Source: Scilla litardierei (lineage: Eukaryota > Streptophyta > Magnoliopsida > Asparagales > Asparagaceae). Taken from it: 64,000 nucleotides of DNA. The stretch lies in contig CM061140.1 in assembly GCA_030789695.1 (NCBI GenBank), positions 83,514,422 through 83,578,421 of the forward strand, in the 5' to 3' direction. A program made the translations under genes and the position numbers. The notes beneath the pieces were generated by a model. That model made no database searches. It was not told where the DNA came from and saw only the letters and a program-made list of their open reading frames with translations. Each line of letters starts with the position of its first letter. Position 1 is the stretch's first letter. This document shows positions 36,331 to 63,338 of this stretch, one piece after another.

Positions 36331-38716
36331 TGTTGGATCTGGATCCTAGCCTAGAGGGGGGGGGGAATAGGCTTTTAAAAATAATTCGTGCAACCCACGA
36401 ATAAGCACACGTAGTTATAACAGCAACATGGTAAATAAAAAAAACAGACACAGAGTACGCAGCAGATTTACCCTGGTTCGGTCGTCCCAACGACCTACTC
36501 CAGCCCCCAAAGCAGAACTAGTATTGAATAGCGCAATAGGTACAAAACCACAAGTTAGAGCACGCTCAGAGCACCCTCTACGTCTCTACACTCGCCAGGC
36601 TCTCAGTACCCCACACATTGTGTTTTCTCTCACTATCAATCCTAGTAACGCTTTCTACCAGCTAGTCCCAAACTAGCTGGGTCCCACTTGTCTAGCCCCA
36701 ACTAGACAAGTCCTAAAATAGTCACAGATAATATGTAAAGTTTCCCCTACGAAGATCTAACAAAAACACTACACAAAATAATAATAAGAGTTTTGAAAGC
36801 TCAGATCATGTAGTAATGTCGTCTTCGTCAATTGGCGCGGGCCAGATGTGTCTGACAAGTAGTAGTAGTCTCTCGGCAACTCAATCAACAAGATACTGCC
36901 TGGTGTTCAATGTTTTGTGCCTGCACAAAAAGAGACAAGCATGTGAACTCTATTCAAATAAAGAAACTTAACTGCCTCTTCAAATAATGGAATCTCCTTG
37001 GGAGATATCTGCCGCAATTTGTAGATTTGAAGGCATGTGTCTTCTTTTATTGGCCTTTGCTTGATGGCTTGTGTGCAAGGCTTAGTGGGGCCGGCCTGTA
37101 CCTTGGCCTTGAGGAATCACGTCAGCTAAGCAAGTGAGGTTTGTCCCCTAGTCAAATAGTGTAGCCTGCAACAACAGTAAATATGAGCAAGTAATGAGTA
37201 CAAAGATTCAACCAAGTCAAACAACATTAAATGTAAAGTAATTTTTGGTCTCCCTTTTGATTTTTGCACTGCAGGCTGATTTCTAAAGACCAATCTTTCA
37301 ATTGTTGCGGCAAGCTCGATGACTAATAATTGGGGTATTCTGTTGGACCTCTTGGCTGTGGGCATGCAAGGGAATGTTGCGGCTACAGGTGGTGATGCTT
37401 CAACAGCAGGGTCGCAATAGCTTGGCTCGCTGAAATTTGTAATTCACGGCTCAAAGGAACATGTGGCTGGGCTTTGGGATGATTGAGGATTTCTTTTAAT
37501 GCTTGAAGGTTGATTGAACGTTGAGCCCCCCACGTGATGATGTCGGCCTAGGCTTGTTTCGTTTTTGTTGCTTGCAAGATCAAAAGTACAAGTTACAAGA
37601 AAACAAAGGGGAACTAAAAAATTGCTTGTGTTGCTTCCCTTTTCATTGTGCCTGTTGAGCTTTTGGTTGGCCTCTTGTTTGGTGCGGCTTCTCCCTGATT
37701 GATATCGTGCGCCCAAAAAAAGCACTCAAATTTTTTTTCGGCTTCCTCTAGAAATAGATTTTTCTTATAAGATGCGGCACCCCTTTGACTGTAGAAACAC
37801 ACAGAGAACCGGCCCTTTTGCAAAACAAAAATGCACAGGCTTGCGCCTTTGAGAAGAACTTGGGAATTGATTTATCCAAGCACGCACAAAAAAAACTCCA
37901 CCTTCTCTAAGTCACGGCACAAATATTTGTGAAGGCCGGCCTTCAAAAAATCCTTGTGCACACAAAAACATCAAAAAAAAAATCACAGCTTGAATCCTTG
38001 TGCACACAAAAAAAAGGCTTGAAATGTTTGTGATAGGAGATTTCTGTTTGAATAAAAATCACAGCTTGAAATGATTGTGCACACAAAAAGAAAGGCTTGA
38101 ATCCTTGCGTGGTTTTCAAAACATGTTATGAAAAACAAAACACAGAGGCAAGAGGCATGAGAGTTCTGTAGCCGTGAGAAAACTTTGAGGATCCTTTGAT
38201 TTTTTAGGAGTAGCTGCACTCTTTGAAAAATTTTAATTGCCATGGGTGTGCTCCTCTTGACACATTGATTATATATAAGAAGAGTACAAGGGTTTTGTGC
38301 AAGAGAGAATCCCTAGAGAATTGGGATTGGGAATTTCAAAAATGATTTGGTTCTATCACTTTGCATCATAGATAGGAGATTTGATTTGATCAAGTTGGGA
38401 TTTGATCTCTAATTGGGATTTGATCAAGTTGGGATTTGATCTTAGATAGCAATTCAAATTGAATATGAAATTGAAATTAATCTCTAATTGATTTGGCCAC
38501 ATCCCAAATAGATTCCATCTCTCTCCACATTGACCAAGTCAAATCTTCTTTGTGCACACACACTCCCTCTCTCCCAATATGCTATACGAATAGCAATTCC
38601 GCCAAATGGTGCAAATATATTGTTTCGCCAAGCCTGAAACACACTAAGCACACACGTTAGATATAACGACACGTTTGTCATCATCAAACCAAGAGCCTAG
38701 ATCGTTGCTTCCAACA
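36331..38716 (-). repeat. B 3' LTR (left copy)
   Basis: 2386 bp. A G10 run at 36356-36365 stands in the motif CTAGAG(G)nAATAGG. TATA-like TTATATATAAT at about 38266. Repeats of CACAGCTTGAA and TGTGCACACAAAA at 37950-38100. Confidence 0.9.
36480..36711 (-). repeat. B LTR stem-loops with CCCAA-type loops
   Basis: GGTCGT/CCCA/ACGACC (36480-36495), CCAGCTAGT/CCCAA/ACTAGCTGG (36658-36680), ACTTGTCTAG/CCCCAA/CTAGACAAGT (36686-36711). Three different perfect stems of 6, 9 and 10 bp around nearly the same loop. Confidence 0.8.
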
Positions 38717-41875: not shown

Positions 41876-42101
41876 TGTTGGATCTGGATCCTAGCCTAGA
41901 GGGGGGGGGGGGGGGGGGGGGGGTGAATAGGCTTTTAAAAATAATTCGTGCAATCCACGAATAAGCACACGCAGTTATAACAGCAACAGGGTAAATAAAA
42001 AAACAGACACTAAGTACGCAGCAGATTTACCCTGGTTCGTCGTCCCAACGACCTACTCCAGCCCCCAAAGCAGAACTAGTATTGAATAGCGCAATAGGTA
42101 C
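41876..42101 (-). repeat. B 5' LTR, end segment
   Basis: Colinear with 36331-36555. Its G run is 23 long (41901-41923) against 10 in the other LTR. Ends in GGTAC, the target duplication of H. Confidence 0.9.
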
Positions 42102-42466
42102 TGATCGCGCCCGGGTGTACACCCTAAAGAGCGACCGTGTAGTTTTACCGCAAGCGCACGGTGTAGTGGTGAGCGGGTATCGAACACAAGGAGACGTATG
42201 ATAGTGCCTTCTCCGAATAACCTGGGTATAGGGACAGAAGAGTAGGAAAGTGCCTTTCGGCGATGTTGTCATAGTTGTCAAACAAATTATAGAGATATAA
42301 AATCAATTAAAGACGCCTAGGGAATAGGGAATCCCCGCTACTCACCGTATCTCGTCATTGTGATTCATCGGTCTCACAATTGCTAGGGTAGAATGTCGGG
42401 TGAACTAGTTGCAACTGAATGTAAAACCTAGCTCACGCTCTCGCGTTGTTGCCGGTCTATAGCGAA

Positions 42467-42770
42467 CCTAGGTTTGGGTCCAATCTCTTGCAAACCCTAG
42501 CCTAGGCAAGCTAGCATTAGGATCAACATCATTGTTCAATCGCATCCCGAGCTCACTCTCGTGCAAACTCGGGCCACGACCTAGGTTGGGGTAATTCCTA
42601 CCCGTCCAATCTCTTGCAAACGGGTATTGGTATAGAATTGCAGCCGAGAACCCTAGTATCGGTCCAATCTCTTGCAAACCGATACTACGGAAACTCAATT
42701 TCAACCCAATTCGGATTTCTAGGGTTTCCTATCGAATTGGGATCCAATCTCTTGCAAATCCCAATCGATA
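42467..42770 (-). repeat. Five stem-loops sharing one 16-nt loop (left H LTR)
   Basis: Loop TCCAATCTCTTGCAAA (variant CTCACTCTCGTGCAAA in the second) between different complementary arms: CCTAGGTTTGGG/CCCTAGCCTAGG (42467-42506, 10 of 12 paired), CCCGAG/CTCGGG (42546-42573), TACCCG/CGGGTA (42599-42626), TAGTATCGG/CCGATACTA (42654-42687), TATCGAATTGGGA/TCCCAATCGATA (42730-42770). On the element's RNA strand the loop reads TTTGCAAGAGATTGGA. Confidence 0.9.
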
Positions 42771-43252
42771 TGAACACCTAGCTATCCGTAATATATCGAT
42801 CCCAAACTAACCCTAATAGCAATTCTAGCAATAGTTCTACCAAATCATCACAAATCGGAAATTGGGCTCGTAGGGTTCATCCCCACGCCCTAAGACGTTA
42901 AGATTACTCACAAATCATATTGCTAATGAAAGAATAATCAATATAAATAGCAATGGAATTCATAGCAATAATCAAAATAACAACAATAAAAATAGGATTT
43001 TTAATAGAGAGGGAGACAAACCAATATAGCTTTCCAAGAATCCAACAAAATAACACTTTTCTCTCCTCTCCAATCACAAGAATAAAACTCTAAAAAGTCT
43101 AATCTAAAAAGGCTGCCAAAAGCAATAGAAAAGCTCTCCAAACTAGGTTAGAATCTGGGGTTAAATACCCCCCAAAACCGCCCAAAAATTCGTGACCAAA
43201 CTGCCCCTGCGTAGCTCCAAAATCGTGATTTCCGCTACAGGCAGCGCTGCTC

Positions 43253-43635
43253 ACTCGACCGAGTGACAAAAGTCGCTCGGCCGAGTGAGAGAACCTGAGA
43301 ATTTACAGTAAGTCCGGGGTCTTGGGGGTCTTCACTTCGGGCGTCACTCGGCCGAGTGAGTTGTCGTCACTCGGCCGATGGGCTTATCTTCACTCGGGCG
43401 GTCGGCCATTGCCACTCGGTCGAGTCGGGCTTCTGCTGCTCAGACTGACGAAAAACAGTAAGTTGGCTCTTTTTGAGGGGCGTCGTCTGAGTGCCGCTCG
43501 GGCGGACGGGATACGTCACTCGGCCGAGGCGGCTTCTGATGCTCGGCCGAGTGCACACTTGAAGCGTGTCCGATTTGGCCGGCCGAGCGGGGTCTCGCTG
43601 GTCGGCCAAGTGACTCCTTCACTCGGCCGAGTGAG
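43253..43635 (-). repeat. CTCGGCCGAG palindrome cluster (left H LTR)
   Basis: About a dozen copies and near-copies of CACTCGGCCGAGTG at irregular spacing. Confidence 0.9.
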
Positions 43636-43925
43636 ACACTGAAAATGCCCATTCTGAGTGTTTTGCCTCATCGCTCCTACAACGTTCTTTCTTCTTCCGC
43701 TCCTCTCCAATCTCAAAATACCCCTCAGGGAAGTCTTTGGTGACACTCCGGAGTGGGTGTATCTTGGAATCACTCCAAATCGCTCCAAATCTCCTGAAAT
43801 ACGACAAAAACAACAAATCGTGAAGAGTATCGCAATATTGTCGATAAACTGTGGAAAACATGATTTGAGCAATCTAAATGGCATGCAAACATGCGGGAAA
43901 AAAGGTGTAAAATACGGAGTGATCA

Positions 43926-43942
43926 AAATCCCCCAAGCTTAC
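43926..43942 (-). other. H polypurine tract
   Basis: Minus strand AAGCTTGGGGGATTT before TGATCACTCC of the LTR. Confidence 0.75.
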
Positions 43943-45875
43943 CTCTTACTCGTCCTCGAGGAAGATAAGTAAAAGGTGAACCCGGTGAATTTAGAAAATG
44001 AAAACGATGGAAAAACGGAAAACGAAAAACGAGGAAGAAAGAAGAAAGCGAAGAGGGAAGCTGCTAGATCATTTTTCTTAGGACGTGGGTTTTGCTTACG
44101 CATATAGCTTGCACCGAATGTAAAACACATGTCAAAGACTTTTATTTCGATATCATAGTATAATGGTGCAAATAGAAATAGAAAACCCAAGAATATTGAT
44201 ATAGCATGAAGAACGGAATAATTCTAAGATTAGCATCGTCTGCATCATTTAAAGCGGTATACAATATCGCAGATCACACACTTTTCAATTGAATACTTTC
44301 TATGAGGAGTATAAGAATATCACGCAATAGAATAGAAAGAATAGAAAAGCGTGGATTTCATGAAATGAGTGCTAGGCGTAGATTTCTGGATTTCGTGAAG
44401 CTAAAACAATCTCACCGAGTATAGAATATTACTTAGCCTAGGTTGTCATGCACCGCCAGGTAGTCACTCTCTCACACATCATTGGATTCTCTCCCCCAAG
44501 TTTATCTATAAGCGTGGTGGCATATACAAAACTGTATTTACATTCCCCATTTCTTTTGAAACTCCAAATGCAAAAGAAAATAAAAATAAAAACGAAAAGA
44601 GGGAAGAAAGAGAGAGAGTATATGAGATGGGTTCGTTTATTGAGATTCTTTTCTCTTTTCTTTTCTTTTTCTCAAATCTTTTTCTTTTCTTTTCTTTCTT
44701 TCTTTAATAGCAATATATACACAAATGATCCCAAATCAAAAGAGAGAGAAGGATGTACAAGAATTTTCTTTTTCTTTTTGGTTTTGGGAAATTTGGATCT
44801 AGGATATTAATAACGGGGGAAATGCCAAATACTAGAGTCGCTAAGTGGAGATTCACCAATGATTTTAAAATAGAGAATTAATGTTCAAGATATGTGGAGA
44901 AAGAAATAAATATGTCTCTCAGTTCACTCTATAAGACGTGCATAACAACTTCAGCAGGGTAATCTAATCTACTCGGTTTCGATCACAAAAAAGCTAACTA
45001 ATCCAGATTCATCATAGCTAACATCATTCAATCATCCTGAAGTGAAGTGTACAAGTCATGCAAATAGAAGTGATATAGGAAAAGAAAACGGTACTCCAGA
45101 TATAAGCATCCAATGCGTGAATCTTCGTGTGTTTTCTACGATAGCATACATATGAATATTCAGACTCAGCTAATCATAGAATTTCATCCATTTTTATACG
45201 GAAAAAGTGTGGGTTACTATCTCTGAATGCAAGGCAAATCATAGCATATGATATCGGAAATAAAAGCTAAGACATGACAAATAAAGCATACATATAGAGA
45301 AAGCTAACTCCACGTCATCATCATCACAGAAAAGTCATCTCTAGCATGAGATGAAAGAAATAAAGATAAAGAGGGAAAAATAAAACTATTTACAATGCGG
45401 CACACGAAGAAAATAAGAAAAACGTGATGCATGGTAAAAAGAGGAAAAAGTGATGAAAGTGCGTGCAAATGCGGAAAATGGCATGAAAAAACTAAAAATA
45501 AAGGTGGTAAATCGAAAAAGCGTGAGACCTCACTCCCCCAAGCTAAAGTGCACAGTGTCCTCAATGTGCAAAGTGTGGCACACCGAGAGACGTGTAATGG
45601 TAGGGGTATGTGAGGATGCATGCATGATGAAAAATAAAAAAATAAATAAAAACAACAAAAAGAAAATATGATGCGGACATGATGCATGCAGATATAAGAG
45701 TGAATCAGATATAAGGGTGTCACACCAAAAAGACTCTCCCTCTCTCCCAAAAATGATATAGAAAGATGTGATCAAAATGTGGGCCCAAAACAGTGAGGGG
45801 AGGGGGGGGGGGGGGGCAAAAATCATCAGGACCAAGCAGAGACGGGCAGCATGACGGCAAAAAAGATCAATGGCA
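43943..45875 (-). other. H spacer between env-like ORF and 3' LTR
   Basis: 1.9 kb, AT-rich, low-complexity CT-rich patches near 44640-44700 and G15 at 45802-45816. No supportable gene; such long spacers are usual in Athila. Confidence 0.6.
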
Positions 45876-48017
45876 TCAAGGGTGCCTAAGAGGGTGGTGC
45901 TGCGCCGTCTCCGTCCTGAGGCGGAGGTGGAGGAGGAGGAGGTGGTGGCTGGGGGACAGTCTGCTGGGTGGGTGGGGGTGTGTGTGTGTGGGTGTAGGAG
46001 CAGGCTGGGTAGGTGTGGGAGTGGGTGTGGGTACCTGCTGGGTGGGTGTGGGAGCGGTCGGTACGCGAGGAAGCCGCTCGAGAATCTGAGTGAGACAATA
46101 GTGAATGCCCGGAAGTAGGTCGAAGCGGCTGGCCATAGCGGTGATGGTGGCAGACATGGTCCTGAGGTCACCTCTGAGGGCACTCACCGCCCCCTCAAGA
46201 GCACGAATGCTCTGAAGTACAGTGTCGGGGGGAGGTGGTGCAGAGGGACGCACGTGTCTGTGCTGTGCAGGACGAGGCTGGCGGACTCGGGTGGTGTAGT
46301 GGATGGGCTCAGCAGGCATGTGGAGGAAGGGTGCTGTGCTCACAAGTGGGGGCCCAGCCTCAGGGCGAGGCTGGGGCGCAGGCTGGTGTGAGGTGGAAGC
46401 AGCAGCAGCGGAAGTGGAATATAAGAGTGGCGACGAGGTGACAAGAGAGGTCAGTGACACAGACGTGGGAGCAGACGTCACGACACTCTCAGATAGTACG
46501 GCTGTGGTGGAGACAAAGGTGACAACCGCTGGGGAGGCAGTGTGGGGTCTGAAAGGTGAAATCCCAGCGGAGATCATACTGGCCATGGTCTCCATGACCG
46601 CAGCGAAAGAAGGCTCTCCGCTCTCAACAAAAGTAGGTGGGCGCTCGGGCAGTGCGGAGCAGAGGGGCTCAACGGACAGAGGGCCAGCTGGGGTGGGAGT
46701 GGTGGTAGTGGAGGCGGTCTCAGCAAGTGTACTCCCGACACCGTAAGAAGTGTGGACAGTGGTGGCGGGAGTAGCAGAAATATCAGGGATAGGCTGAGGG
46801 GCCACGGGGTCAACGGGTGCAGCGTGTGCAGCGTGGGCCTGCTCAGCCTGCTCGGCCTCCTCGGCCTCAAGCACGTAGGCGGCGGGGATCAGGAGATCCA
46901 TCGCCGGAAGCCAGTCCACCTGTGCTGATGCTATCTGTGTCTGAGCTGGGCTCGGAAGGATCATGTAATCAGCACCGTAGGGACCGTGCAACCAAACCCA
47001 GTGCCGCTGGCCGTGCGGACGAAGCATCTTCATCCGGGCCATGACGTCTATAGACAGAGAAGTGGGGCCCGGTGCTCGTCGCAGGTCAGCCGGAAGGTCC
47101 TCGTCGGTCATCAGGGCGATCAGGGTGATCAGACCGTCGCAACATAACGGTGAGCGAGCGCCCACCGATACGATGATGCGGTCCAAAAACCAGCTCGCGA
47201 TATCAATCACGACGGCGGGGACCAACTCGTCACTCCCCCTAGCTAGAGCTCTGGGGCACGTCATCGCGTAGAGCATATAAAGCTCCGGCGTGGACATCGT
47301 CTCAGGCTCATACCTCGCCAAAAAGGTAGTCGCCATGAGGCGCTGAGCTATGCGGAGGCAGGGGTGGACGATCGCCGAGGCCTTGGCCCTACTAGGGTCA
47401 AAGGCAGCTGGTAAACCCGTGATCCGGGCCCAGAAAGAGTGGGAATCGAAGGAAGATGGGGGAATGTGAGTGGGGGTGTAACCACGGTCGGCCCCGGGGA
47501 CATCGGGCCACGAAAAGAATGCTCTCATCATACCAAGAGTGACCTGGCACTCTCGATCCATAAACCTAAACGAGCATCCCTCGTCGGTCCGGGCTATAGA
47601 ACTCAGCACCTCAAGTGTCGGACGGACGAAGGTGTCCGCCGACACTTGGAAAAAATCTCGCCAACCCACGTTGTCATACAACGTGAGCATCCCCTCAAGT
47701 ACCCCCAGGCGTCCTAGGTCTGCAAGGTGTGCGAACCTGGAGGGTACAATCGAGCGCTGGGAAATGCGCTCAAAAACGACGCGGTGTGCGTCGTCCCGGA
47801 ACGTAATCCCCAGCGACCCGACAAGTGGAGCCGTGGTGGCAGTGGGTCGGCAGGGAGTGGCTGTGCGGGGGTGAACGGGGACTGCAGGCTGTGGCTGTGC
47901 GGGGTGAGGTGGTGTAGGCAGAGGAGAGTCCTCCATCTCGTGGGAGGGGCCGGGCTCATCTGGCCGCTTCCGCTTGGCGGAAGCTCTCCTGGTGCGTGGC
48001 CGTGTCCGGGGCGGCAT
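45876..48017 (-). CDS. Athila env-like / ORF-1-type protein
   Basis: 713 codons uninterrupted on minus. Basic N-terminus with a nuclear-signal-like stretch (RTRPRTRRASAKRKRPD), then a globular domain of about 300 residues (FERISQRSIVPSRF, LYDNVGWRDFF, LGMMRAFFSWPDVPG) as in the ORF that follows pol in Athila elements, then a Pro/Thr/Ser-rich tail. No clear signal peptide or strong transmembrane segment, so a true envelope role is doubtful; function unknown. It is the only intact long ORF of H and is preceded by its own TATA box at 48404. Confidence 0.75.
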   Translation of the reverse strand: MPPRTRPRTRRASAKRKRPDEPGPSHEMEDSPLPTPPHPAQPQPAVPVHPRTATPCRPTATTAPLVGSLGITFRDDAHRVVFERISQRSIVPSRFAHLADLGRLGVLEGMLTLYDNVGWRDFFQVSADTFVRPTLEVLSSIARTDEGCSFRFMDRECQVTLGMMRAFFSWPDVPGADRGYTPTHIPPSSFDSHSFWARITGLPAAFDPSRAKASAIVHPCLRIAQRLMATTFLARYEPETMSTPELYMLYAMTCPRALARGSDELVPAVVIDIASWFLDRIIVSVGARSPLCCDGLITLIALMTDEDLPADLRRAPGPTSLSIDVMARMKMLRPHGQRHWVWLHGPYGADYMILPSPAQTQIASAQVDWLPAMDLLIPAAYVLEAEEAEQAEQAHAAHAAPVDPVAPQPIPDISATPATTVHTSYGVGSTLAETASTTTTPTPAGPLSVEPLCSALPERPPTFVESGEPSFAAVMETMASMISAGISPFRPHTASPAVVTFVSTTAVLSESVVTSAPTSVSLTSLVTSSPLLYSTSAAAASTSHQPAPQPRPEAGPPLVSTAPFLHMPAEPIHYTTRVRQPRPAQHRHVRPSAPPPPDTVLQSIRALEGAVSALRGDLRTMSATITAMASRFDLLPGIHYCLTQILERLPRVPTAPTPTQQVPTPTPTPTQPAPTPTHTHPHPPSRLSPSHHLLLLHLRLRTETAQHHPLRHP

Positions 48018-48403
48018 GTATGCCCCGGGTGCTCACCAAAAATGAAATAAATGCGGCGTGCGAAAATGAGTGGAGCGAATATACCAGAACACACCGCGAG
48101 AGCAAAATGGTGGATGCGTGTGAAGACGCCGCCTCCACGAAGCCAAAAACCCTCCCCGGAAGCTCCCCTAGGCTCCCCTAAGCTCCCCAATATACCTGGA
48201 GGTTGGCCGGCGGCAAGGGAGTCGCCGGCGACTCGGGCGGTGTGGAGGGGTCGTCGGCCGGCGGTGGTCGGCCGAGCGCGGCGGTGGGCAAGGCGGTCGG
48301 GTGAGTGGGGGGGGGATCGCAGCGGTCGTAGGAGCGATCGGGCACGAGCTCGGGTGAGAAATCGATAAATAACTCTTCGAATTTCGCGCCGAGCCCGCAG
48401 CGC

Positions 48404-48413
48404 CTTATATAAG
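48404..48413 (-). promoter_or_regulatory. Possible internal promoter of the env-like ORF
   Basis: Minus strand CTTATATAAGG about 390 bp upstream of the ORF's ATG and about 10 bp downstream of the CTCGGCCGAG cluster. The LTR has the same order: cluster, then TATTTAA. Confidence 0.6.
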
Positions 48414-48423
48414 AAAAAGTTAC

Positions 48424-48760
48424 GACTCGGCCGAGTGACTAAGTCGCTCGGCCGAGTGAACGTAACGGAAATATTTTTGAAAATTCCTCCCCGCTTACGA
48501 CTCGGCCGAGTGGCCTTGCCACCCTCGGCCGAGTGGAAAAAGTCCATTCGGCCGAGTGGCTCAAGCTACTCGGCAATACTCGCCCTAGGAGCGTATCAGT
48601 TTCACTCGGCCGAGTGAAGATTTATACTCGGCCGAGTGGCAATTATACTGAAATCAAAAAAAGAAACAGAGAGTTGGGTACAGCAGACTTCCCTCGTTGG
48701 TGCGCCGCTCGGGCGGACGAACTTATGTGCTCGGCCGAGTGGCTAGTGTACTCGGTCGAG
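48424..48760 (-). repeat. CTCGGCCGAG palindrome cluster upstream of the env-like ORF
   Basis: At least nine copies of CTCGGCCGAGTG or close variants, the same word as in the LTRs, although this DNA is internal. Confidence 0.9.
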
Positions 48761-49093
48761 TGAATCCTGTTTTCTGCTGTTTGGCTCCGTTTGGGCTCTA
48801 ATCTCTGTTTTTCTTCCTCCAGTCGATTTCATCCTCCTCCTAAGCATCGAGCGCATTCCTGGAGCACTCCTCATCGCCTTGTTCATCCTCCTAATGATAG
48901 GTATCCCTTTCTCCTCTCCTGTCAAAGAAAAATAGGACCCGTTATCACGAAATTTTCAGGCAAACGACTCAAAACACTAATAATTTCTAAAACAAAAATA
49001 AAGGAAAAAGTGAAAATAAAGCGATAACCGTCGGGTTGCCTCCCGACAAGCGCTCGTTTAAGGTCTTGAGCTCGACCCCCTTTAATTTTCAAT
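48761..49093 (-). other. H spacer between integrase and env-like region
   Basis: No gene seen; AT-rich with a poly-A-rich patch. Confidence 0.55.
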
Positions 49094-50107
49094 TTAATGC
49101 GGGATATTGGGTGCGTATGAGATGCACCCGTCGAACTTATTTGGAAGAGCGCTGGGATTTGGATGTTGTGGCGGTGTGTTCTTCCTCAGTGCTCCTTCGC
49201 CTCGGGCAGTGTTGGGGGGTGGCTCCCCCAAGCTTGTGCTTGCTCTGGGCCTCGGCTTCACCGGTAACACCGATTTTCGTATCGATGGGGCTTTCTTTGG
49301 AGTCTTCATTTTTGAGAACTTACAGAGCTCTCGTATTCTCGCGACATCAGCGTCGCTTTCGTCAATTTCCATGGAGGGGTCGGGGGAATTCTCCATCTTT
49401 TCTTCTTGGCCCAAGTCCGGCCCTTCCTCAAAATCTTCCTCGAATAGTGTGCCGAGGGAATGGGGGATCGCCTCCTCAATAACCTCGTCAAGGAGGTATG
49501 AAAGATCATCCGGCCGTCCCTTAAGCAGATATATTCTGCTTATTTCTCCCATAGGGACTCCATCGGAATAATGCTTGAGCCTTTGTCCATTCACTTTGAA
49601 TGTGGCTCCGTCGTTGCCTTCCAACTCAAAAGCTCCTCCCGGTTGTATGTGCTTGATGGTGAAAGGTCCGGACCACCTTGACCTCAATTTGCCAGGAAAT
49701 AGTCGGAGCCGGGAGTTATATAGCAAGACCTTGTCTCCGACTTTGAAGTCCGTAACAGTTATGCGTGCATCGTGGAGAATCTTGGTCCTTTCTTTGTAAA
49801 TCCTCGAGCTCTCGTATGCATCTCTTCTAATCTCATCAAGCTCGTTGATGTCCAAGAGTCGCCTCACCGCTGCACTCTTATAATCGTAGTTGAGGGTCTT
49901 GATGGCCCAATACGCGCGGTGTTCCAGCTCTACCGGAAAGTGACAAGCTTTCCCATAAACAAGTCGGAACGGTGTGGTGCCGATGGGAGTGCGAAAGGCT
50001 GTGCGATATGCCCAAAGAGCATCGTTTAACTTCATTGACCAATCCTTTCTAGATCGATCTACGGTCTTCTCAAGGATTTGCTTGATCTCTCTATTCGAGA
50101 CCTCCAC
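49094..50107 (-). pseudogene. H integrase C-terminal part
   Basis: Continues the integrase frame after the TAA at 50108-50110: [16 protein letters not shown], then [37 protein letters not shown] and the C-terminal [11 protein letters not shown] typical of Athila integrases. The catalytic Glu of the D,D-35-E core lies just after the stop, so the upstream product would lack it. The last 110 residues are a Pro/acidic tail. Confidence 0.85.
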
Positions 50108-51316
50108 TTAGCCGCTCGTTTGGGGGTGATATGCCATGCCAACTCTATGGTTTACCCCGTACTTCTTCAGCATGGTTTCGAACTTGTTTTCTATGAAGTG
50201 ACTCCCCCCGTCACTTATCAAGGTACGAGGCACCCCGAAGCGTGGGAAGATATTCTGCTTGAAAAATTTAGAAACAACCCTTGCATCATTGGTAGGGGTA
50301 GCGATTGCTTCCACCCATTTGGAGACGTAGTCAACGGCCAATAGGATATACTTGTTACCGTTGCTTGACGGAAATGGTCCCATGAAGTCCACTCCCCAAC
50401 AATCAAAAAGCTCAATTTCTTGGATGGTCCTCATCGGCATCTCATTACGTTTGGAAATATTCCCGGTCCGTTGGCACCTGTTACACCCCTTCACAATGTC
50501 GTGGGTGTCTCTGAACATTGTTGGCCAGAAGAATCCGCTCTGCAAAATTTTAGCGGTTGTCTTAGAGGCGGCATGATGTCCCCCGCATGGTATACCGTGG
50601 CAATGCAAAATGATAGACGTTGCCTCCTCTTTAGAAACACACCTCCGAATAACACTATCTTTGCATATCTTGAAGAGGTATGGATCTTCCCAAAAATAGC
50701 TACGGACCTCATACAAAAATCTCCTCTTTTGATGCGTGGGCATCCCATGCGGTTTAATTCCACAAGCCAAGTAATTGACGAAGTCCGCGTACCAAGGTAC
50801 TTCCCCGGGCCTTATGGCGTATAGCCTCTCATCCACGAATGTGTCGTCGATAGGTAAACTCTCATCCTCCTTGTCGCGAATAAGCCTAAACAAATGATCC
50901 GCCACAACATTGTCCGTACCTTTCTTGTCTCTGATCTCCAAATCGAATTCTTGCAACAAGAGTATCCACCTAATTAACCGAGGTTTGGCATCCTTCTTGT
51001 TTAAAAGATATTTCAATGCCGCATGATCGGTGTGGACAATCATCTTGGAACCAAGGAGGTAGGAGCGAAACTTCTCGATGGAATAGACGACCGCTAGAAG
51101 CTCTTTTTCGGTAGTTGTATAGTTTTTCTGCGCGTCATCCAATGTCTTGCTCGCATAGAATATTGCATGAAGCTTCCTATCTTTCCTTTGTCCCAATACC
51201 GCTCCAATGGCTTGGTCGCTAGCATCACACATTAGCTCAAAGGGAAGGCTCCAATCCGGTGGTTGTATGATGGGTACAGAAATTAGTGCTTCCTTCAAGG
51301 TATTGAAGGCTTGCAA
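50108..51316 (-). pseudogene. H RNase H and integrase N-terminal/core
   Basis: 402 codons. RNase H with the Asp in [15 protein letters not shown], Glu in [11 protein letters not shown] and Asp in [11 protein letters not shown]. Then the integrase zinc-binding HHCC region ending CNRCQRTG, and core residues [10 protein letters not shown] and ISDGGSHF. Terminated by TAA 50108-50110 immediately before the catalytic Glu. Out of frame with RT by one base near 51320. Integrase inserts element DNA; this copy is inactive. Confidence 0.9.
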
Positions 51317-52956
51317 GCATTCGCCTGAAAAATAAAAGGAGTATCTTTAGCAAGCAAGAAAGTAAGCGGTCGGACAATCGAGGCAAAATCCTTGATAAAG
51401 CGACGGTAAAACCCCGCATGACCAAGAAAGCCTCTAATGCCCTTGACATTAATAGGAGGAAGGAGTTTCTCGATTACCTCAATCTTTGCTTTATCTACCT
51501 CAATTCCTCTCGAGGAGACAAGGTGCCCAAGAACTATACCTTCCGTGACCATGAAGTGACATTTCTCCCAATTTAGAGTGAGATTATTTTGTTGGCACCT
51601 TTTAAGGACTTTAGTAAGATTGGCCAAACAAGAGTCAAACTCACTTCCATAAACCGAAAAATCATCCATAAAAACTTCCATAATATTTTCAATGTAATCG
51701 GAAAATATGGATGTCATACACCTCTGAAAGGTGGCGGGAGCATTACAAAGACCAAACGGCATCCTACGGTAGGCATATGTACCATAGGGACACGTAAAAG
51801 TGGTCTTTTCTTGGTCATCTTCGTGCAAAGGGATTTGGAAGAACCCCGAATACCCATCTAAATAACAAAAGTATTTATGTTTAGCTAGGCGTTCAAGCAT
51901 TTGATCAATGAAGGGCAATGGGTAATGGTCCTTTCGGGTCGCTTTATTTAGTTTCCTATAATCAATGCACATTCGCCATCCTATGACGGTGCATGTAGAA
52001 ATGGGCTTTCCTTTATCATTTTTTATAACAGTCATCCCCCCTTTCTTGGGGACGACGTGAACGGGGCTAACCCATCTACTATCAGAGATCGGATAGATAA
52101 TTCCAGCATCAAGCAATTTTAGGATTTCCTTTTTCACTACCTCTTTCATATTCGGGTTCAACCGCCTTTGAGGCTCAATAGAAGAGGCTTCAGTGTTTTT
52201 CAAGTGGATCCTGTGCGTGCATAGCCTAGGGCTTATTCCCTTAAGATCAGAGATTGTGTAACCAAGGACATCCTTGTGATCCCTAAGGACTTCTAATAAT
52301 TTTTCAAGTTGGTCTTGACCGAGGTGGGCATTTACAATCACCGGGAAGGTCAATTTACTACCCAAGAAAGCATACCTTAGATTCGACGGTAGTTGTTTAA
52401 GCTCTACCTCAAAGGGTGCCGCACCCTCTGCTTCGTCACCTTGTGTGAATTTGACTTCTCCTTCAACATCTGAATTTAGCTCACTCTCGAATGGGGGCTC
52501 AGATTCGCTTCCTAGTGAGGACGGTGCATCGGAATAGACGCTCTCCGATTCTGCGCCTGCATCGATAGGACCACCACCTTGCTCCGGTTCATTCCTGAGA
52601 TCAAGATATACGTCAGAAGATTCATAAATGCAAGAGTGAGGGTCATAGAGTGTATCTCCCTGAGTATCTGTTTGTTCGAAGTGTTCCTCGGGAGTGTAGC
52701 ACTCTTCGACACATGTTCTATCGCCTTCAAAATATAGCTTGTCGTCCCTCACATCAACTCTGATATCGCCCCCAATAGTCCCATCCGGGGAGATTTGATC
52801 CATCACGAAGCTAGCAAACAGTTGTTCGACGGGGTCCTCTATATTAATAGCAAAAGCTCCGGTAGCGTAGACCTCATCAATAAGTTCCTTGAGGAGCTCC
52901 GCAAAAGATTCATCATCTCCCTGGTCAGACTCAGTCATTGGAATTGCATCCCCCAT
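51295..52956 (-). pseudogene. H reverse transcriptase with acidic N-terminus; gag and protease absent
   Basis: 553 codons. Residues 1-190 are acidic and unrecognised (MTESDQGDDESFAELLKELI). From about 195 the Athila RT begins: KGISPRLCTHRIHL, VVKKEILKLLDAGIIYPISD, WRMCIDYRKLNKATRKDHYP, YLDGYSGFFQIPLHED, FGLCNAPATFQRCM and the catalytic VFMDDFSVYG. A one-base frameshift near 51320 ends the frame early, and RNase H follows in another frame. Neither a capsid, a zinc knuckle nor a protease active site precedes it; only about 145 bp separate its ATG from the primer site. Confidence 0.92.
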
Positions 52957-53100
52957 TTTGCCTGTTAAGATTTCGTGGAGAATTTCGAGAGGGATTGCAA
53001 AATAGGGCTGTAAACAGAGTTAGAAAAGAATGAAGCAATAAAGAAAGAGATTGGAGAGAAATAACCGGGTGATCCAAATCAAACTCTGTCAAAACGCCGC

Positions 53101-53118
53101 TCCCCGGCAACGGTGCCA
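53101..53118 (-). other. H primer-binding site
   Basis: Minus strand TGGCACCGTTGCCGGGGA, one change from the Athila consensus TGGCGCCGTTGCCGGGGA (tRNA-Asp). Confidence 0.88.
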
Positions 53119-53490
53119 AAAACTTGATCGTGCCCGGGCGTACACCCTAAAGAGCGACCGTGTAGTTTTACTGCAAGCGCACGGTATAGCGGCGAGCGGG
53201 TATCGAACACAGGGAGGACGTATGACAGTGCCTTCTCCGAACAACCTGGCTATAGGGACAGAAGAGTAGGAAAGTGCCTTTCGGCGATGTTGTCACAGTT
53301 GTCAAACAAATTATAGAGATATAAAATCAATTAAAGACGCCTAGGGAATAGGGAATCCCCGCTACTCACCGTATCTCGTCATTGTGATTCATCGGTCTCA
53401 CAATTGCTAGGGTAGAATGTCGGGTGAACTAGTTGCAACTGAATGTAAAACCTAGCTCACGCTCTCGCGCTGTTGCCGGTCTATAGCAAA

Positions 53491-53794
53491 CCTAGGTTCG
53501 GGTCCAATCTCTTGCAAACCCTAGCCGAGGCAAGCTAGCATTAGGATCAACATCATTGTTCAATCGCATCCCGAGCCCACTCTCGTGCAAACTCGGGCCA
53601 CGACCTAGGTTGGGGTAATTCCTACCCGTCCAATCTCTTGCAAACGGGTATCGGTATAGAATTGCAACCGAGAACCCTAGTATCGGTCCAATCTCTTGTA
53701 AACCGATACTACGGAAACTCAATTTCAACCCAATTTGAATTTCTAGGGTTTCCTATCGAATTGGGATCCAATCTCTTGCAAATCCCAATCGATA
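53491..53794 (-). repeat. Five stem-loops sharing one 16-nt loop (right H LTR)
   Basis: Same five hairpins as in the left LTR. Stems 2-5 are unchanged. Loop 4 has CTTGTAAA, loop 2 starts CCC, and stem 1 has changed in both arms without restored pairing. Confidence 0.9.
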
Positions 53795-54274
53795 TGAACA
53801 CCTAGCTATCCGTAATATATCGATCCCAAACTAACCCTAATAGCAATTCTAGCAATAGTTCTACCAAATCATCACAAATCGGAAATTAGGCTCGTAGGGT
53901 TCATCCCCACGCCCTAAGACGTTAAGACTACTCGCAAATCATATTGCTAATGAAAGAATAATCAATAGAAATAGCAATGGAATTCATAGCAATAATCAAA
54001 ATAACAACAATAAAAATAGGATTTTTAATAGAGAGGGAGACAAACCAATATAGCTTTCCAAGAATCCAACAAAATAACACTTTTCTCTCCTCTCCAATCA
54101 CAAGAATAAAACTCTAAAAAGTCTAATCTAAAAAGGCTGCGAAAAACAATAGAAAAGCTCTCCAAACTAGGTTAGAATCTGGGGTTAAATACCCCCCAAA
54201 ACTGCCCAAAAATTCGTGACCAAACTGCCCCTGCGTAGCTCCAAAATCGTGATTTCCGCTACAGGCAGCGCTGC

Positions 54275-54660
54275 TCACTCGGCCGAGTGACAAAAGTCGC
54301 TCGGCCGAGTGAGAGACCCTGAGAATTTACAGTAAGTCCGGGGTCTTGGGGGTCTTCACTTCGGGCGTCACTCGGCCGAGTGAGTTTTCGTCACTCGGCC
54401 GATGGGCTTATCTTCACTCGGGCGGTCGGCCATTGCCACTCGGCCGAGTCGGGCTTCTGCTACTCAGACTGACGAAAAACAGTAAGTTGGCTCTTTTTGA
54501 GGGGCGTCGTCTGAGTGCCGCTCGGGCGAACGGGATACGTCACTCGGCCGAGGCGGCTTCTGATGCTCGGCCGAGTGCACACTTGAAGCGTGTCCGATCT
54601 GGCCGGCCGAGCGGGGTCTCGCTGGTCGGCCGAGTGACTCCTTCACTCGGCCGAGTGAGA
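54275..54660 (-). repeat. CTCGGCCGAG palindrome cluster (right H LTR)
   Basis: Same cluster as in the left LTR, slightly less mutated (for example 54277 reads CTCGGCCGAG where 43254 has CTCGACCGAG). Confidence 0.9.
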
Positions 54661-54958
54661 CACTGAAAATGCCCATTCTGAGTGTTTTTGCCTCATCGTC
54701 GCTCCTACGACGTTCTTTCTTCTTCCGCTCCTCTCCAATCTCAAAATACCCCTCAGGGAAGTCTTTGGTGACACTCCAGAGTGGGTGTATCTCGGAATCA
54801 CTCCAAATCGCTCCAAATCTCCTGAAATACGACAAAAACAACAAATCGTGAAGAGTATCGCAATATTGTCGATAAACCGTGGAAAACATGATTTGAGCGA
54901 TCTAAATGGCATGCAAACATGCGGGAAAAAAGGTGTAAAGTACGGAGTGATCGGGTAC

Positions 54959-57158
54959 AAAACCACAAGTTAGAGCATGCTCAGAGCACCCTCTACGTCT
55001 CTACACTCGCCAGGCTCTCAGTATCCCACACACTGTGTTTTCTCTCGCTATCAATCCTAGTAACGCTTTCTACCAGCTAGTCCCAAACTAGCTGGGTCCC
55101 ACTTGTCTAGCCCCAACTAGACAAGTCCCAAAATAGTCACAGAAAATATGTAAAGTTTCCCCTACGAAGATCTAACAAAAACACTGCACAAAATAATAAA
55201 AAGAGTTTTGAAAGCTCAGATCATGTAGTAATGTCGACTTCGTCAATTGGCACGGGCCAGATGTGTCTGGCAAGTAGTAGTAGTCTCTCGGTAACTCAAT
55301 CAACAAGATACTGCCTGGTGTTCAATGTTTTGTGCCTGCACAAAAAGAGACGAGCATGTGAACTCTATTCAAATAAAGAAACTTAACTGCCTCTTCAAAT
55401 AATGGAATCTCCTTGGGAGATATCTGCCGCAATTTGTAGATTTGAAGGCCAGTGTCTTCTTTTATTGGCCTTTGCTTGATGGCTTGTGTGCAAGGCTTAG
55501 TGGGGCCGGCCTGTCCCTAGGCCTTGAGGAATCACGTCAGCTAAGCAAGTGAGGTTTGTCCCCTAGTCAAATAGTGTAGCCTGCAACAACAGTAAATATG
55601 AGCAAGTAATGAGTACAAAGATTCAACCAAGTCAAACAACATTAAATGTAAAGTAATTTTTGGTCTCCCTTTTGATTTTTGCACTGCAGGCTGATTTCTA
55701 AAGACCAATCTTTCAATTGTTGCGGCAAGCTCGATGACTAATAATTGGGGTACTCTGTTGGACCTCTTGGCTGTGGGCATGCAAGGGAATGTTGCGGCTA
55801 TAGGTGGTGATGCTTCAACAGCAGGGTCGCAATAGCTTGGCTCGCTGAAATTTGTAATTCACGGCTCAAAGGAACATGCGGCTGGGCTTTGGGATGATTG
55901 AGGATTGCTTTTAATGCTTGAAGGTTGATTGAACGTTAAACCCCCCACGTGATGATGTCGGCCTAGGCTTGTTTCGTTTTTGTTGCCTGCAAGATCAAAA
56001 GTACAAGTTACAAGAAAACAAATGGGAATTAAAAAATTGCTTGTGTTGCTTCCCTTTTCATTGTGCCTGTTGAGCTTTTGGTTGGCCTCTTGTTTGGTGC
56101 GGCTTCTCCTTGATTGATATCGTGCGCCCCAAAAAAAGCACTCAAAAATTTTTTCGGCTTCATCTAGAAATAGATTTTTCTTATAAGATGCGGCACCCCT
56201 TTGACTGTAGAAACACACAGAGAACCGGCCCTTTTGCAAAACAAAAATGCACAGGCTTGCGCCTTTGAGAAGAACTTGGGAATTGATTTATCCAAGCACG
56301 CACAAAAAAAACTCCACCTTCTCTAAGTCACGACACAAATATTTGTGAAGGCCGGCCTTCAAAAAATCCTTGTGCACACAAAAACATCAAAAAAAAATCA
56401 CAGCTTGAATCCTTGTGCACACAAAAAAAGGCTTGAAATGTTTGTGATAGGAGATTTCTGTTTGAAAAAAAATCACAGCTTGAAATGATTGTGCACACAA
56501 AAAGAAAGGCTTGAATCCTTGCGTGGTTTTCAAAACATGTTATGAAAAACAAAACACAGAGGCAAGAGGCATGAGAGTTCTGTAGCCGTGAGAAAACTTT
56601 GAGGCTCCTTTGATTTTAAGGTGTTGCCGCACTCTTTGAAAAATTTTAATTGCCGTGGGTGTGCTCCTCTTGACACATTGATTATATATAAGAAGAGTAC
56701 AAGACATTGATTATATATAAGAAGAGTACAAGGGTTTTGTGCAAGAGAGAATCCCTAGAGAATTGGGATTGAGAATTTCAAAAATGATTTGGTTCTATCA
56801 CTTTGCATCATAGATAGGAGATTTGATTTGATCAAGTTGGGATTTGATCTCTAATTGGGATTTGATCAAGTTGGGATTTGATCATAGATAGCAATTCAAA
56901 TTGAATATGAAATTGAAATTAATCTCTAATTGATTTGGCCACATCCCAAATAGATTCCATCTCTCTCCACATTGACTAAGTCAAATCTTCTTTGTGCACA
57001 CACACTCCCTCTCTCCCAATATGCTATACGAATAGCAATTCCGCCAAATGGTGCAAATATATTGTTTCGCCAAGCCTGAAACACACTAAGCACACACGTT
57101 AGATATAACGACACGCTTGTCATCATCCAACCAAGAGCCTAGATCGTTGCTTCCAACA
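54959..57158 (-). repeat. B 5' LTR, main segment
   Basis: Colinear with 36541-38716. It has a 31-bp tandem duplication near 56676-56735 (ACATTGATTATATATAAGAA plus GAGTACAAG) covering the TATA-like site, single in the other LTR. Confidence 0.9.
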
Positions 57159-61735: not shown

Positions 61736-61920
61736 AAACAAAGAAATATTTTGAATGTAAGAGATAACTCTCTTTCCTTGAATCTTTTACATTTTTCTGC
61801 GCTGCTGTACTTGTTGTACTTTTATCGAGTGTTTCGCCCTCCCGCTGTTCATACCGAGGTGGTTCACTGGTCTAGGTAGCAGGAGGTTTTTCTTTTCATC
61901 GGCGGAGTCATCGCCATATC
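61736..61920 (+). other. Segment between antisense ORF and minisatellite
   Basis: AT-rich 3'-UTR-like DNA after the coiled-coil frame; no poly(A) signal that stands out. Confidence 0.4.
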
Positions 61921-61922
61921 GA

Positions 61923-63172
61923 GGTGATTGGCCTACTGGGGGAGTGGCCCCCAGCCTTATGGGCGATCGGAGTGATCGGTCGGCTGGAGGAGTTGCCCCT
62001 AGCCTTATGGATGATCGTAGTGATCAGCCTGCTGGGGGAGTTGCCCCTAGCCTTACGGACGATCATTGTGATCGGCCTGCCGGGGGAGTCTCCCCTGCCT
62101 TATGGTCGATTGTAGTGATCGGCCTGCTGGGGGAGTCGCCTCCAGCCTTATGGTCGATCGTAGTGATCGACCTGTTGGGGGACTCGCCCCCAGCCTTACG
62201 GTCGATCCCAGCCTTACGGACGATTGTTGCGATCAGCCTGCTGGGGGGTTGCCCCAGCCTTACTGACGATCGTTGTGATCGGCCTGCTGGGGGAGTTGCC
62301 CCCAGCCTTACGTGCGATCATTGGGATCAGCATGCTGGGAGAGTTGCCCCCAGCCTTACGGACGATCGTTACGATCGGTCTGCTAGGGGAGTTGTCCTCA
62401 GCCTTACAGAAGATCGTTGCGATCGGCCCGCTGAGGGAGTTGTCCCCAGCCTTACGGACGATCATTGTGATTGGCCTGATGGGGGAGTTGCCCCCAGCCT
62501 TATATTCGATCAGAGTGATTGGCCTGCTGGGGGAGCTGCCCCTAGCCTTATGGTCGATCGGGGTGATCGACCCACTGGGAGAGTTGCCCCCAGACTTATG
62601 GTCGATCGTTGTGATCGGCCTACTGGGAGAGTTGCCCCCAGCCTTACGGCCGATCATTGAGATCGGCCTGCTGGGGGAGTTGCCCCCAGCCTTACGGGCG
62701 ATTGTTGCGATCGACCCACTGGGGGAGTTGCCCCCAGCCTTACGGGCGATCGTTGCGATCGGCCCGCTAGGGGAGTTGCCCCAGCCTTACGGATGATCGT
62801 TGTGATCGGCCTACTGAGGGAGTTTCCCCCAGCCTTATAGTCGATCAGAGTGATCTACATGCTGGGGGGCTCCCCCAGCCTTATAGTCGATCAGAGTGAT
62901 CGGCCTGCTTGGGGGAGCTGCCTCCAGCCTTATGGTCGATCGGGGTGATCGGCCCGCTGGGGGAGTTTCCCCAGCCTTATGATCGATCGTTGTGTTTGGC
63001 CTGTGGGGGAGTTGCCCCCAGCCTTACGGGTGATCGTTGCGATCGGCCTGCTGGGGGGTTGCCTCCAACCGTACGGATGATCGTTGTGATCGACCTGCTT
63101 GGGGAGTTGCCCCAGCCTTACGGGCGATCGGAGTGATCGGCCTGCTGGGGGAGCTGCCCCCAACCTTACAGG
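61923..63172. repeat. 48-bp minisatellite, about 26 units
   Basis: Consensus roughly GATCGGCCTGCTGGGGGAGT plus TGCCCCCAGCCTTACGG plus ACGATCGTTGT. Each unit holds a hairpin CTGGGGG/AGTTG/CCCCCAG. Because 48 is a multiple of 3, long repetitive frames arise on both strands (AGGVAPSLTDDRCDR; LLGELPPALRTIV); I do not count them as genes. Confidence 0.93.
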
Positions 63173-63338
63173 TGACCATGAGGTCTGGTGTAGTGGAGCG
63201 GGAGGAAACACGATTGTTTTGGTGCGAACTTGAATTTCATTCTCTGAACTGGGGGTACATTCGAAAGGAAAAAAGCAGGGAAGATAATGGTGAGCTAATC
63301 TCGCCTGGGGAGGAGTCTCAGTTGATTGACCCGCCTTA

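What the first reader, a model, noticed from the sequence alone, without database searches (positions are those of the whole stretch)
42467..53794. Five hairpins with different stems but one constant 16-nt loop in the Athila LTRs
In both H LTRs (42467-42770 and 53491-53794) TCCAATCTCTTGCAAA, or one close variant, recurs five times within 300 bp. Each time it is bracketed by arms complementary to each other but unlike the arms of the other copies (CCCGAG/CTCGGG, TACCCG/CGGGTA, TAGTATCGG/CCGATACTA, TATCGA-TTGGGA). Ordinary tandem duplication would copy the arms too. A fixed loop with re-paired stems suggests selection for RNA structure or a mechanism that makes new inverted arms around a fixed word. 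On the element's strand the array lies about 360-660 nt after the TATTTAA box, i.e. in the RNA leader. It could serve in packaging, dimerisation or translation control. I know of no described equivalent.
Basis: partly seen in the sequence, partly recalled or inferred. Interest (0 to 1): 0.86.

Follow-up and report, generated by a model that had tools for sequence, protein, structure and literature searches.

The report
Hairpin array in plant retrotransposon leader
A plant Athila-type jumping gene carries five hairpins in a row that share one word at the tip but have unrelated stems, most likely a multi-site signal for packing its RNA, though no relatives could be checked.

Summary
In both LTRs of a 12.85-kb minus-strand Athila-type element (42102-54953), one 16-nt word recurs five times in ~300 bp. 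Four copies sit on perfect 6-9 bp stems of unrelated sequence. The fifth (H1) has only 3 bp, then an interrupted stem. With words fixed and flanks permuted, 0 of 80,000 trials came near (total stem 31; maximum 13). The same word at 118 unrelated prokaryote sites never has a stem above 3 bp. A covariance model finds these ten sites; nothing else in the window scores below E 0.1. The 'loop' is not simply open: on the element's RNA strand the stem continues weakly (U-A, U·G) to a purine-rich tip whose exact fold is undecided. The words lie at +379 to +643 of a predicted 1.2-kb leader. Mutation alone would not spare the word while replacing the arms, so selection on a hairpin-presented word is my reading. 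The leading mechanism is a multi-site Gag/nucleocapsid packaging signal, resembling virus packaging-signal arrays. This function is inferred. No gag domain was found in the element, so a helper's Gag would be needed. All evidence comes from one ancestral LTR; the own-genome search did not complete (25 tries), so family conservation is untested.

The parts
42102..54953 (-). Athila-type Ty3/gypsy LTR retrotransposon (sense = minus strand), 5-bp target duplication GGTAC at 42097-42101 and 54954-54958
   Evidence: LTR pair 97.4% identical; pol and ATHILA domains; flanks joined with one TSD copy match the empty copy at 36504-36583, 79 of 80 bases
53125..54953 (-). 5' LTR (upstream in element sense)
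42102..43925 (-). 3' LTR
53100..53118 (-). primer binding site next to the 5' LTR (looks like the tRNA-Asp type of Athila; attribution recalled)
   Evidence: sequence
54185..54191 (-). TATTTAA box of the 5' LTR; RNA start assumed 31 nt after its first base
53755..53794 (-). hairpin H5 (first in the RNA, word at +379)
53675..53714 (-). hairpin H4 (word at +459; one base of the word changed in this LTR)
53617..53656 (-). hairpin H3 (word at +517)
53564..53603 (-). hairpin H2 (word variant, +570)
53491..53530 (-). hairpin H1 (word at +643; only 3 bp next to the word, then an interrupted stem)
42731..42770 (-). hairpin H5, 3' LTR copy
42651..42690 (-). hairpin H4, 3' LTR copy
42593..42632 (-). hairpin H3, 3' LTR copy
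42540..42579 (-). hairpin H2, 3' LTR copy
42467..42506 (-). hairpin H1, 3' LTR copy
51295..52956 (-). first long ORF after the leader: reverse transcriptase (PF00078); no gag domain found in it

Best explanation
The array is a set of five selected RNA hairpins in the leader (R-U5) of the element's genomic RNA. Each stem is only a scaffold; what is kept is the tip, a 16-nt word with weak U-A/U·G pairs under a purine-rich loop. Five copies in about 300 nt would let several molecules of one RNA-binding protein bind next to each other. The most likely ligand is the Gag/nucleocapsid protein of the element family, so that the array acts as (part of) the packaging signal. Shown: the inverted arms, their excess over chance, their place downstream of the TATA box. 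Predicted: the RNA start and the folds. Inferred: selection at RNA level. Conjectured: the ligand and packaging.
For: Stems are re-paired while the word stays, unlike the same word elsewhere (0 of 118 sites with a stem above 3 bp). The model finds 10 of 10 known sites at E 2.9e-12 to 1.1e-10; the next best, E 0.11, is the antisense of H4. All five stems form in the modelled 1,204-nt sense leader, only 2 of 5 strongly in the antisense. Downstream of the RNA start the array gives the strongest fold excess (z down to -4.3 in 100-nt windows); the other structured island is the U3 palindromes upstream of it. The U2·G15 pair of the tip exists only on the sense strand (an A·C mismatch on the other). 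Flanks between units show almost no homology (p<0.01 in 2 of 20 comparisons), so recent tandem duplication does not explain the shared word. By analogy: the HIV-1 packaging signal holds more than two dozen nucleocapsid sites, the strongest in a labile [UUUU]:[GGAG] stem; MMTV uses a purine loop; BARE2 RNA, without its own Gag, is packaged.
Against: No protein-binding or expression evidence. No gag domain found in this element, so its own Gag is unlikely to be the ligand. Effective sample is five hairpins of one LTR. After insertion the core changed at the neutral rate, 3 of 140 positions against 3.2 expected, as in a dead copy. Fold excess is as strong on the antisense strand (z -5.27 and -5.14, against -5.19 and -4.19 sense), and in the local LTR1 antisense fold 4 of 5 form. 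Array windows are uneven: the H3 and H1 windows alone are near z -0.8 and -0.5. The six inner stem pairs hold no G·U, unexpected if only RNA pairing is selected. The tip fold is undecided, with tip pairs 5-14, 6-13 and 7-12 at p 0.21-0.62 in the leader. In HIV-1, replacing the GGAG tip loop did not significantly affect packaging, so a tip need not be decisive.
Confidence: 0.42

Rival explanations
1. The same RNA hairpins bind a host RNA-binding protein or steer translation or export of a very long leader with many upstream AUGs (shunt, internal entry, repression), not packaging.
For: Predicted 1,204-nt leader with 10 upstream ATGs before the first long ORF's ATG; same structural evidence as for packaging.
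Against: No known RNA family over the array: Rfam gave three weak hits in 42000-55000, all far below gathering score and none over the array. The first ORF here is pol, not gag, so the native start is unknown.
Confidence: 0.25
2. The palindromes act as DNA: repeated inverted-arm sites for a DNA-binding protein, or cruciform or stalling sites in reverse transcription.
For: Antisense fold excess equals sense; the six inner stem pairs are purely Watson-Crick.
Against: Arms are unrelated, so there is no common DNA site outside the word; the U·G pairs and stable leader stems favour the sense RNA; the array lies downstream of the TATA box.
Confidence: 0.12
3. Mutational origin without selection on structure: template switching in reverse transcription turns imperfect palindromes into perfect ones, so arms stay complementary as they drift.
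For: Perfect arms with no G·U in the six inner pairs; almost no flank homology between units.
Against: Does not explain why the 16-nt word stays the same in 4 of 5 hairpins while the arms differ; H1 was not perfected.
Confidence: 0.1
4. The hairpins are small-RNA precursors or targets (compare siRNA854 of Athila6).
For: Athila6 makes regulatory siRNAs, and fold-back structure was one proposed trigger (PMC3276544, passages).
Against: Inner stems of 6-12 bp are too short for a Dicer-like product (general knowledge); no miRNA family over the array.
Confidence: 0.06

Closest known systems
Packaging-signal arrays of ssRNA viruses and hepatitis B virus (several stem-loops with one coat-protein motif in the loops)
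   Same: Several stem-loops show one purine-rich motif; HBV's motif is RGAG (passages of PMC7612645) and the tips here hold AGAG. The AGAG match is short and may be chance.
   Different: Here the hairpins are clustered in 300 nt of an LTR leader and keep a 16-nt word, and no capsid protein binding is known; the virus sites are described as dispersed.
Retroviral packaging signal (psi) in the 5' leader
   Same: Position in the leader upstream of the first gene; weak U·G pairs and a purine-rich loop, compare the labile nucleocapsid site of HIV-1 (passages of PMC7599994) and the purine loop of MMTV (abstract of PMC8096270).
   Different: Five copies of one long word, all before the PBS; the GAGA tip is not self-complementary, so no kissing-loop dimer through it.
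BARE1/BARE2 of barley
   Same: Plant LTR retrotransposon whose Gag-less form is said to keep conserved dimerisation and packaging signals and to be packaged (passages of PMC3735527).
   Different: Copia superfamily; the passages read mention no array of equal-tip hairpins (I saw passages only).
Sirevirus repeated-motif boxes
   Same: Repeated inverted arms in plant LTRs (PMC2829016, passages). The U3 CTCGGCCGAG palindromes of this element resemble them.
   Different: There the CGG-CCG core is constant, upstream of the TATA box, and compared to transcriptional activators; in the array the arms vary, the centre is constant and it lies downstream of the TATA box.

Membership tests
Athila lineage of Ty3/gypsy retrotransposons | pol order RT - RNase H - integrase | tested here: met
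   PF00078, then PF17917/PF17919, PF17921, PF00665 in sense order over two ORFs in different frames
Athila lineage of Ty3/gypsy retrotransposons | Athila-specific ORF | tested here: met
   PF03078 ATHILA ORF-1, E 2e-10, at 45876-48017, 3' of integrase
Athila lineage of Ty3/gypsy retrotransposons | LTRs with a target duplication and tRNA primer site | tested here: met
   GGTAC duplication; primer site at 53100-53118 read by eye, tRNA type recalled
Athila lineage of Ty3/gypsy retrotransposons | gag gene between primer site and pol | tested here: not met
   No gag domain in the six minus-strand ORFs of 150 aa or more in the element, nor in 44000-45700; 168 nt from the LTR end to the RT ORF's ATG. 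Described as Athila-type and gag-less, not as an intact member
Retroviral-type packaging signal | structured region in the 5' leader of the genomic RNA | tested here: met
   (predicted fold; RNA start assumed)
Retroviral-type packaging signal | binds Gag/nucleocapsid and is needed for packaging | not testable with these tools
   needs binding and packaging assays
Retroviral-type packaging signal | self-complementary dimerisation loop | tested here: not met
   array tips GAGA or CAAGAGAU (ACGAGA in H2) are not self-complementary (sequence); other parts of the leader not examined for this
Multi-site packaging-signal arrays | several stem-loops with one loop motif on different stems | tested here: met
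   one of five (H1) weakly
Multi-site packaging-signal arrays | sites dispersed over the genome | tested here: not met
   no further sense-strand match in the element below E 7
Multi-site packaging-signal arrays | conserved in relatives | not tested
   own-genome search unanswered in 25 tries; the searches that answered gave no relative of the array

The most novel reading that the evidence does not exclude
A modular RNA assembly signal in a plant Ty3/gypsy lineage: one 16-nt recognition word has been set again and again on independently evolved stems, so that five equal binding tips stand in a row in the leader. It would be a packaging element of array type, new for an LTR retrotransposon as far as my searches show, and kept by a gag-less, trans-mobilised member.
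Probability: 0.3. Interest if true: 0.75.

Novelty: new variant of a known kind. Interest (0 to 1): 0.6.

Why it matters
Little seems to be known of packaging signals in plant LTR retrotransposons (general knowledge; the one paper that the search returned is on BARE). An array of five separable, predictable hairpins in an Athila leader would make packaging, and the parasitism of gag-less copies on intact ones, directly testable by binding and deletion assays. It would also suggest that the packaging-signal logic of RNA viruses (same tip, free stem) is used by retrotransposons.

Tried and rejected
Recent tandem duplication: rejected. The arms and flanks are not shared; 2 of 20 flank comparisons reach p<0.01 (H1/H3 3' side, H3/H5 5' side), which may be traces of old duplication.

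Comparison of the two LTRs as evidence of constraint: rejected. They were one sequence at insertion and the core changed at the neutral rate.

GNRA tetraloop as a proven tip: held open. The H2 variant fits it (A-U to C-G) but prefers another fold by 1.1-1.9 kcal/mol. Of all triple changes of the word, 13.6% keep the five tip pairs and 2.9% do so with a two-sided change, as H2 does: weak evidence.

Kissing-loop dimerisation through the tips: rejected on sequence. Known RNA family: none over the array.

Relatives: the 10 viral contigs stretches with two copies of the 11-nt core have stems of 0-1 bp at all 21 cores. These serve as a control. The pol protein found no viral contigs relative. A reading frame through the array found no protein: 5 candidates, none at E up to 1. 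The ATHILA-type ORF found no protein at E 0.001 among 7,994 candidates scored. The host species is therefore not identified; among the 120 best of 7,973 pol hits the named ones are plants, save one labelled Salmonella, at up to 76% identity.

Papers: nine searches. Four listed nothing; 60 looked for the word itself. In the listings of the others, and in the six papers of which I saw passages or an abstract, I saw no such array. The library lacks most subscription journals.
Full report
WHAT IS THERE. The window holds an LTR retrotransposon on the minus strand, 42102-54953 (12,852 bases), with LTRs 97.4% identical, a GGTAC target duplication and an empty-site match at 36504-36583, 79 of 80 bases. 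Domains in sense order are reverse transcriptase, RNase H, integrase, then the ATHILA ORF-1 family. No gag domain was found. The RT ORF starts 168 nt after the LTR and pol is split between two frames, so this copy looks defective.

THE ARRAY. TTTGCAAGAGATTGGA (sense strand) or a variant occurs five times per LTR. In sense order (H5, H4, H3, H2, H1) the perfect Watson-Crick stems directly beside the word are 7, 9, 6, 6 and 3 bp in LTR1. H5 continues after a one-base bulge. H1 is interrupted after GGG/CCC and resumes with CCTAGG/CCTAGG, with one mismatch in LTR2.

IS IT MORE THAN CHANCE. Own-arm pairing (28 of 30) is the best of 120 arrangements in each LTR, the next best being 26. With words fixed and flanks permuted within each gap, total stem reaches at most 13 in 80,000 trials against 31 observed, and no trial has four stems of 6 bp. 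With flanks dinucleotide-shuffled, 0 of 960 fold as well, z -5.15. At 118 prokaryote sites that hold the exact word, the stem is 0, 1, 2 or 3 bp at 86, 21, 6 and 5 sites: four of the five hairpins are far outside this range, and H1's inner stem is not. Whole 316-nt array z: LTR1 -5.19 sense and -5.27 antisense; LTR2 -4.19 and -5.14 (200 shuffles each).

PAIR COUNTS. On 10 hairpins (9 distinct rows), 96.0% of 99 cells pair (shuffled 74.1%), 21 cells have changes on both sides (shuffled 7.0) and the covariation score is 0.641 (0.219), with 0 of 500 shuffles reaching these three. Seven of 11 pairs have a two-sided change (6 of 500 shuffles as high). The number of further pair types is not unusual (174 of 500). 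Sliding the partner by one column halves pairing. These are paralogous hairpins of one LTR, so this is covariation among five units, not among species. The structure was also read from these same sequences.

THE TIP. On the sense strand the stem continues with U1-A16 and U2·G15 (U·G and U-A or U·G in H2). Above it either C5-G14, A6-U13, A7-U12 close a GAGA tetraloop with a two-base bulge (UG; UA in the LTR2 copy of H4), or pairs 3-14 and 4-13 continue to an 8-nt loop CAAGAGAU. The first fold is better by 0.4 kcal/mol in H5, H3 and the LTR1 copy of H4. The LTR2 copy of H4 prefers the second by 0.9, and H2 prefers a third, with loop ACGAGA, by 1.1-1.9 (H1 not evaluated there, its best fold is the first). 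I therefore claim a purine-rich tip with labile U·G pairs, not a proven GNRA loop. The U2·G15 pair would be A·C on the other strand.

POSITION. With the RNA start assumed 31 nt after the first base of TATTTAA, the words begin at +379, +459, +517, +570 and +643 of a 1,204-nt leader with 10 upstream ATGs. In the modelled sense leader the three innermost stem pairs have p 0.87-1.00 in all five hairpins; in the antisense they are near 1 in two of five and 0.17-0.32 in three (LTR2 sequence). In the local antisense fold of LTR1 four of five form, by eye, so strand preference is moderate. Scanning the 5' LTR in 100-nt windows shows two structured islands: the U3 palindromes (z down to -5.8 sense, -7.2 antisense) and this array (down to -4.3 sense, -4.4 antisense), with weak stretches inside the array.

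SEARCH FOR FURTHER COPIES. A covariance model of the ten hairpins, run without filters over the window, returns the ten (E 2.9e-12 to 1.1e-10), then the antisense of H4 twice (E 0.11), then 12 matches at E 0.71-7.9: 24 in all at E up to 10.

MECHANISM. Three facts must be explained: the word is kept, the arms are replaced but stay complementary, and the units sit close together downstream of the promoter. Plain tandem duplication fails on the second; palindrome correction by template switching fails on the first. Selection on a tip carried by a free stem explains all three. A row of equal tips suggests several copies of one protein side by side. In an LTR element's leader, Gag/nucleocapsid is the obvious candidate. 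Known parallels are the RGAG stem-loops of hepatitis B virus and, in the same passages, the packaging signals of ssRNA viruses (PMC7612645; further papers listing only), the labile [UUUU]:[GGAG] nucleocapsid site of HIV-1 among more than two dozen (passages of PMC7599994), and the purine loop of MMTV (abstract of PMC8096270). Against the analogy, replacing the HIV-1 GGAG tip loop did not significantly affect packaging, and the murine virus protein binds a linker, not a tip. BARE2 shows that a Gag-less plant element's RNA can be packaged (passages of PMC3735527). Steps not shown: expression, the real RNA ends, any protein bound, any effect on packaging.

LIMITS. The decisive comparison, other members of the family, could not be made: the own-genome search was unanswered in all 25 tries, and the searches that answered gave no relative of the array. 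The host plant is not identified. The lack of G·U in the six inner pairs of nine rows keeps the DNA-level and mutational rivals alive.

VERDICT. A real and unusual structure, probably selected at RNA level, most likely a multi-site binding array for packaging; a new variant of a known kind. Confidence in a selected RNA hairpin array about 0.75; in the packaging role about 0.42.

Noticed in passing
43276-43631, 54278-54655 and 48426-48760: CTCGGCCGAG palindromes cluster in U3 upstream of the TATA box and again between pol and the ATHILA-type ORF. Sirevirus CGG-CCG boxes lie in the same two kinds of place in HOPIE and Inga (PMC2829016, passages), so an Athila-type element may share this layout.
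   Followed up: partly
52957-53124: No gag domain was found in the element: only 168 nt separate the LTR from the RT ORF's ATG. Possibly a trans-mobilised, gag-less family like BARE2, or a later deletion.
   Followed up: partly
36331-38716 and 41876-57158: The Athila-type element sits inside the right-hand copy of a repeat pair that looks like the LTRs of an outer element with a copia-type gag (PF14223, 40037-41647); a run of 23 G lies at 41901-41923.
   Followed up: partly
6896-7290, 12368-13006 and 61918-63175: Tandem arrays; in the first two, near-constant arms (CTAGTCGGT/ACCGACTAG) enclose differing centres, the reverse of the pattern studied here.
   Followed up: no
52957-54160: 10 upstream ATGs in the predicted 1.2-kb leader, none between about +289 and +591, which covers most of the array.
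   Followed up: no
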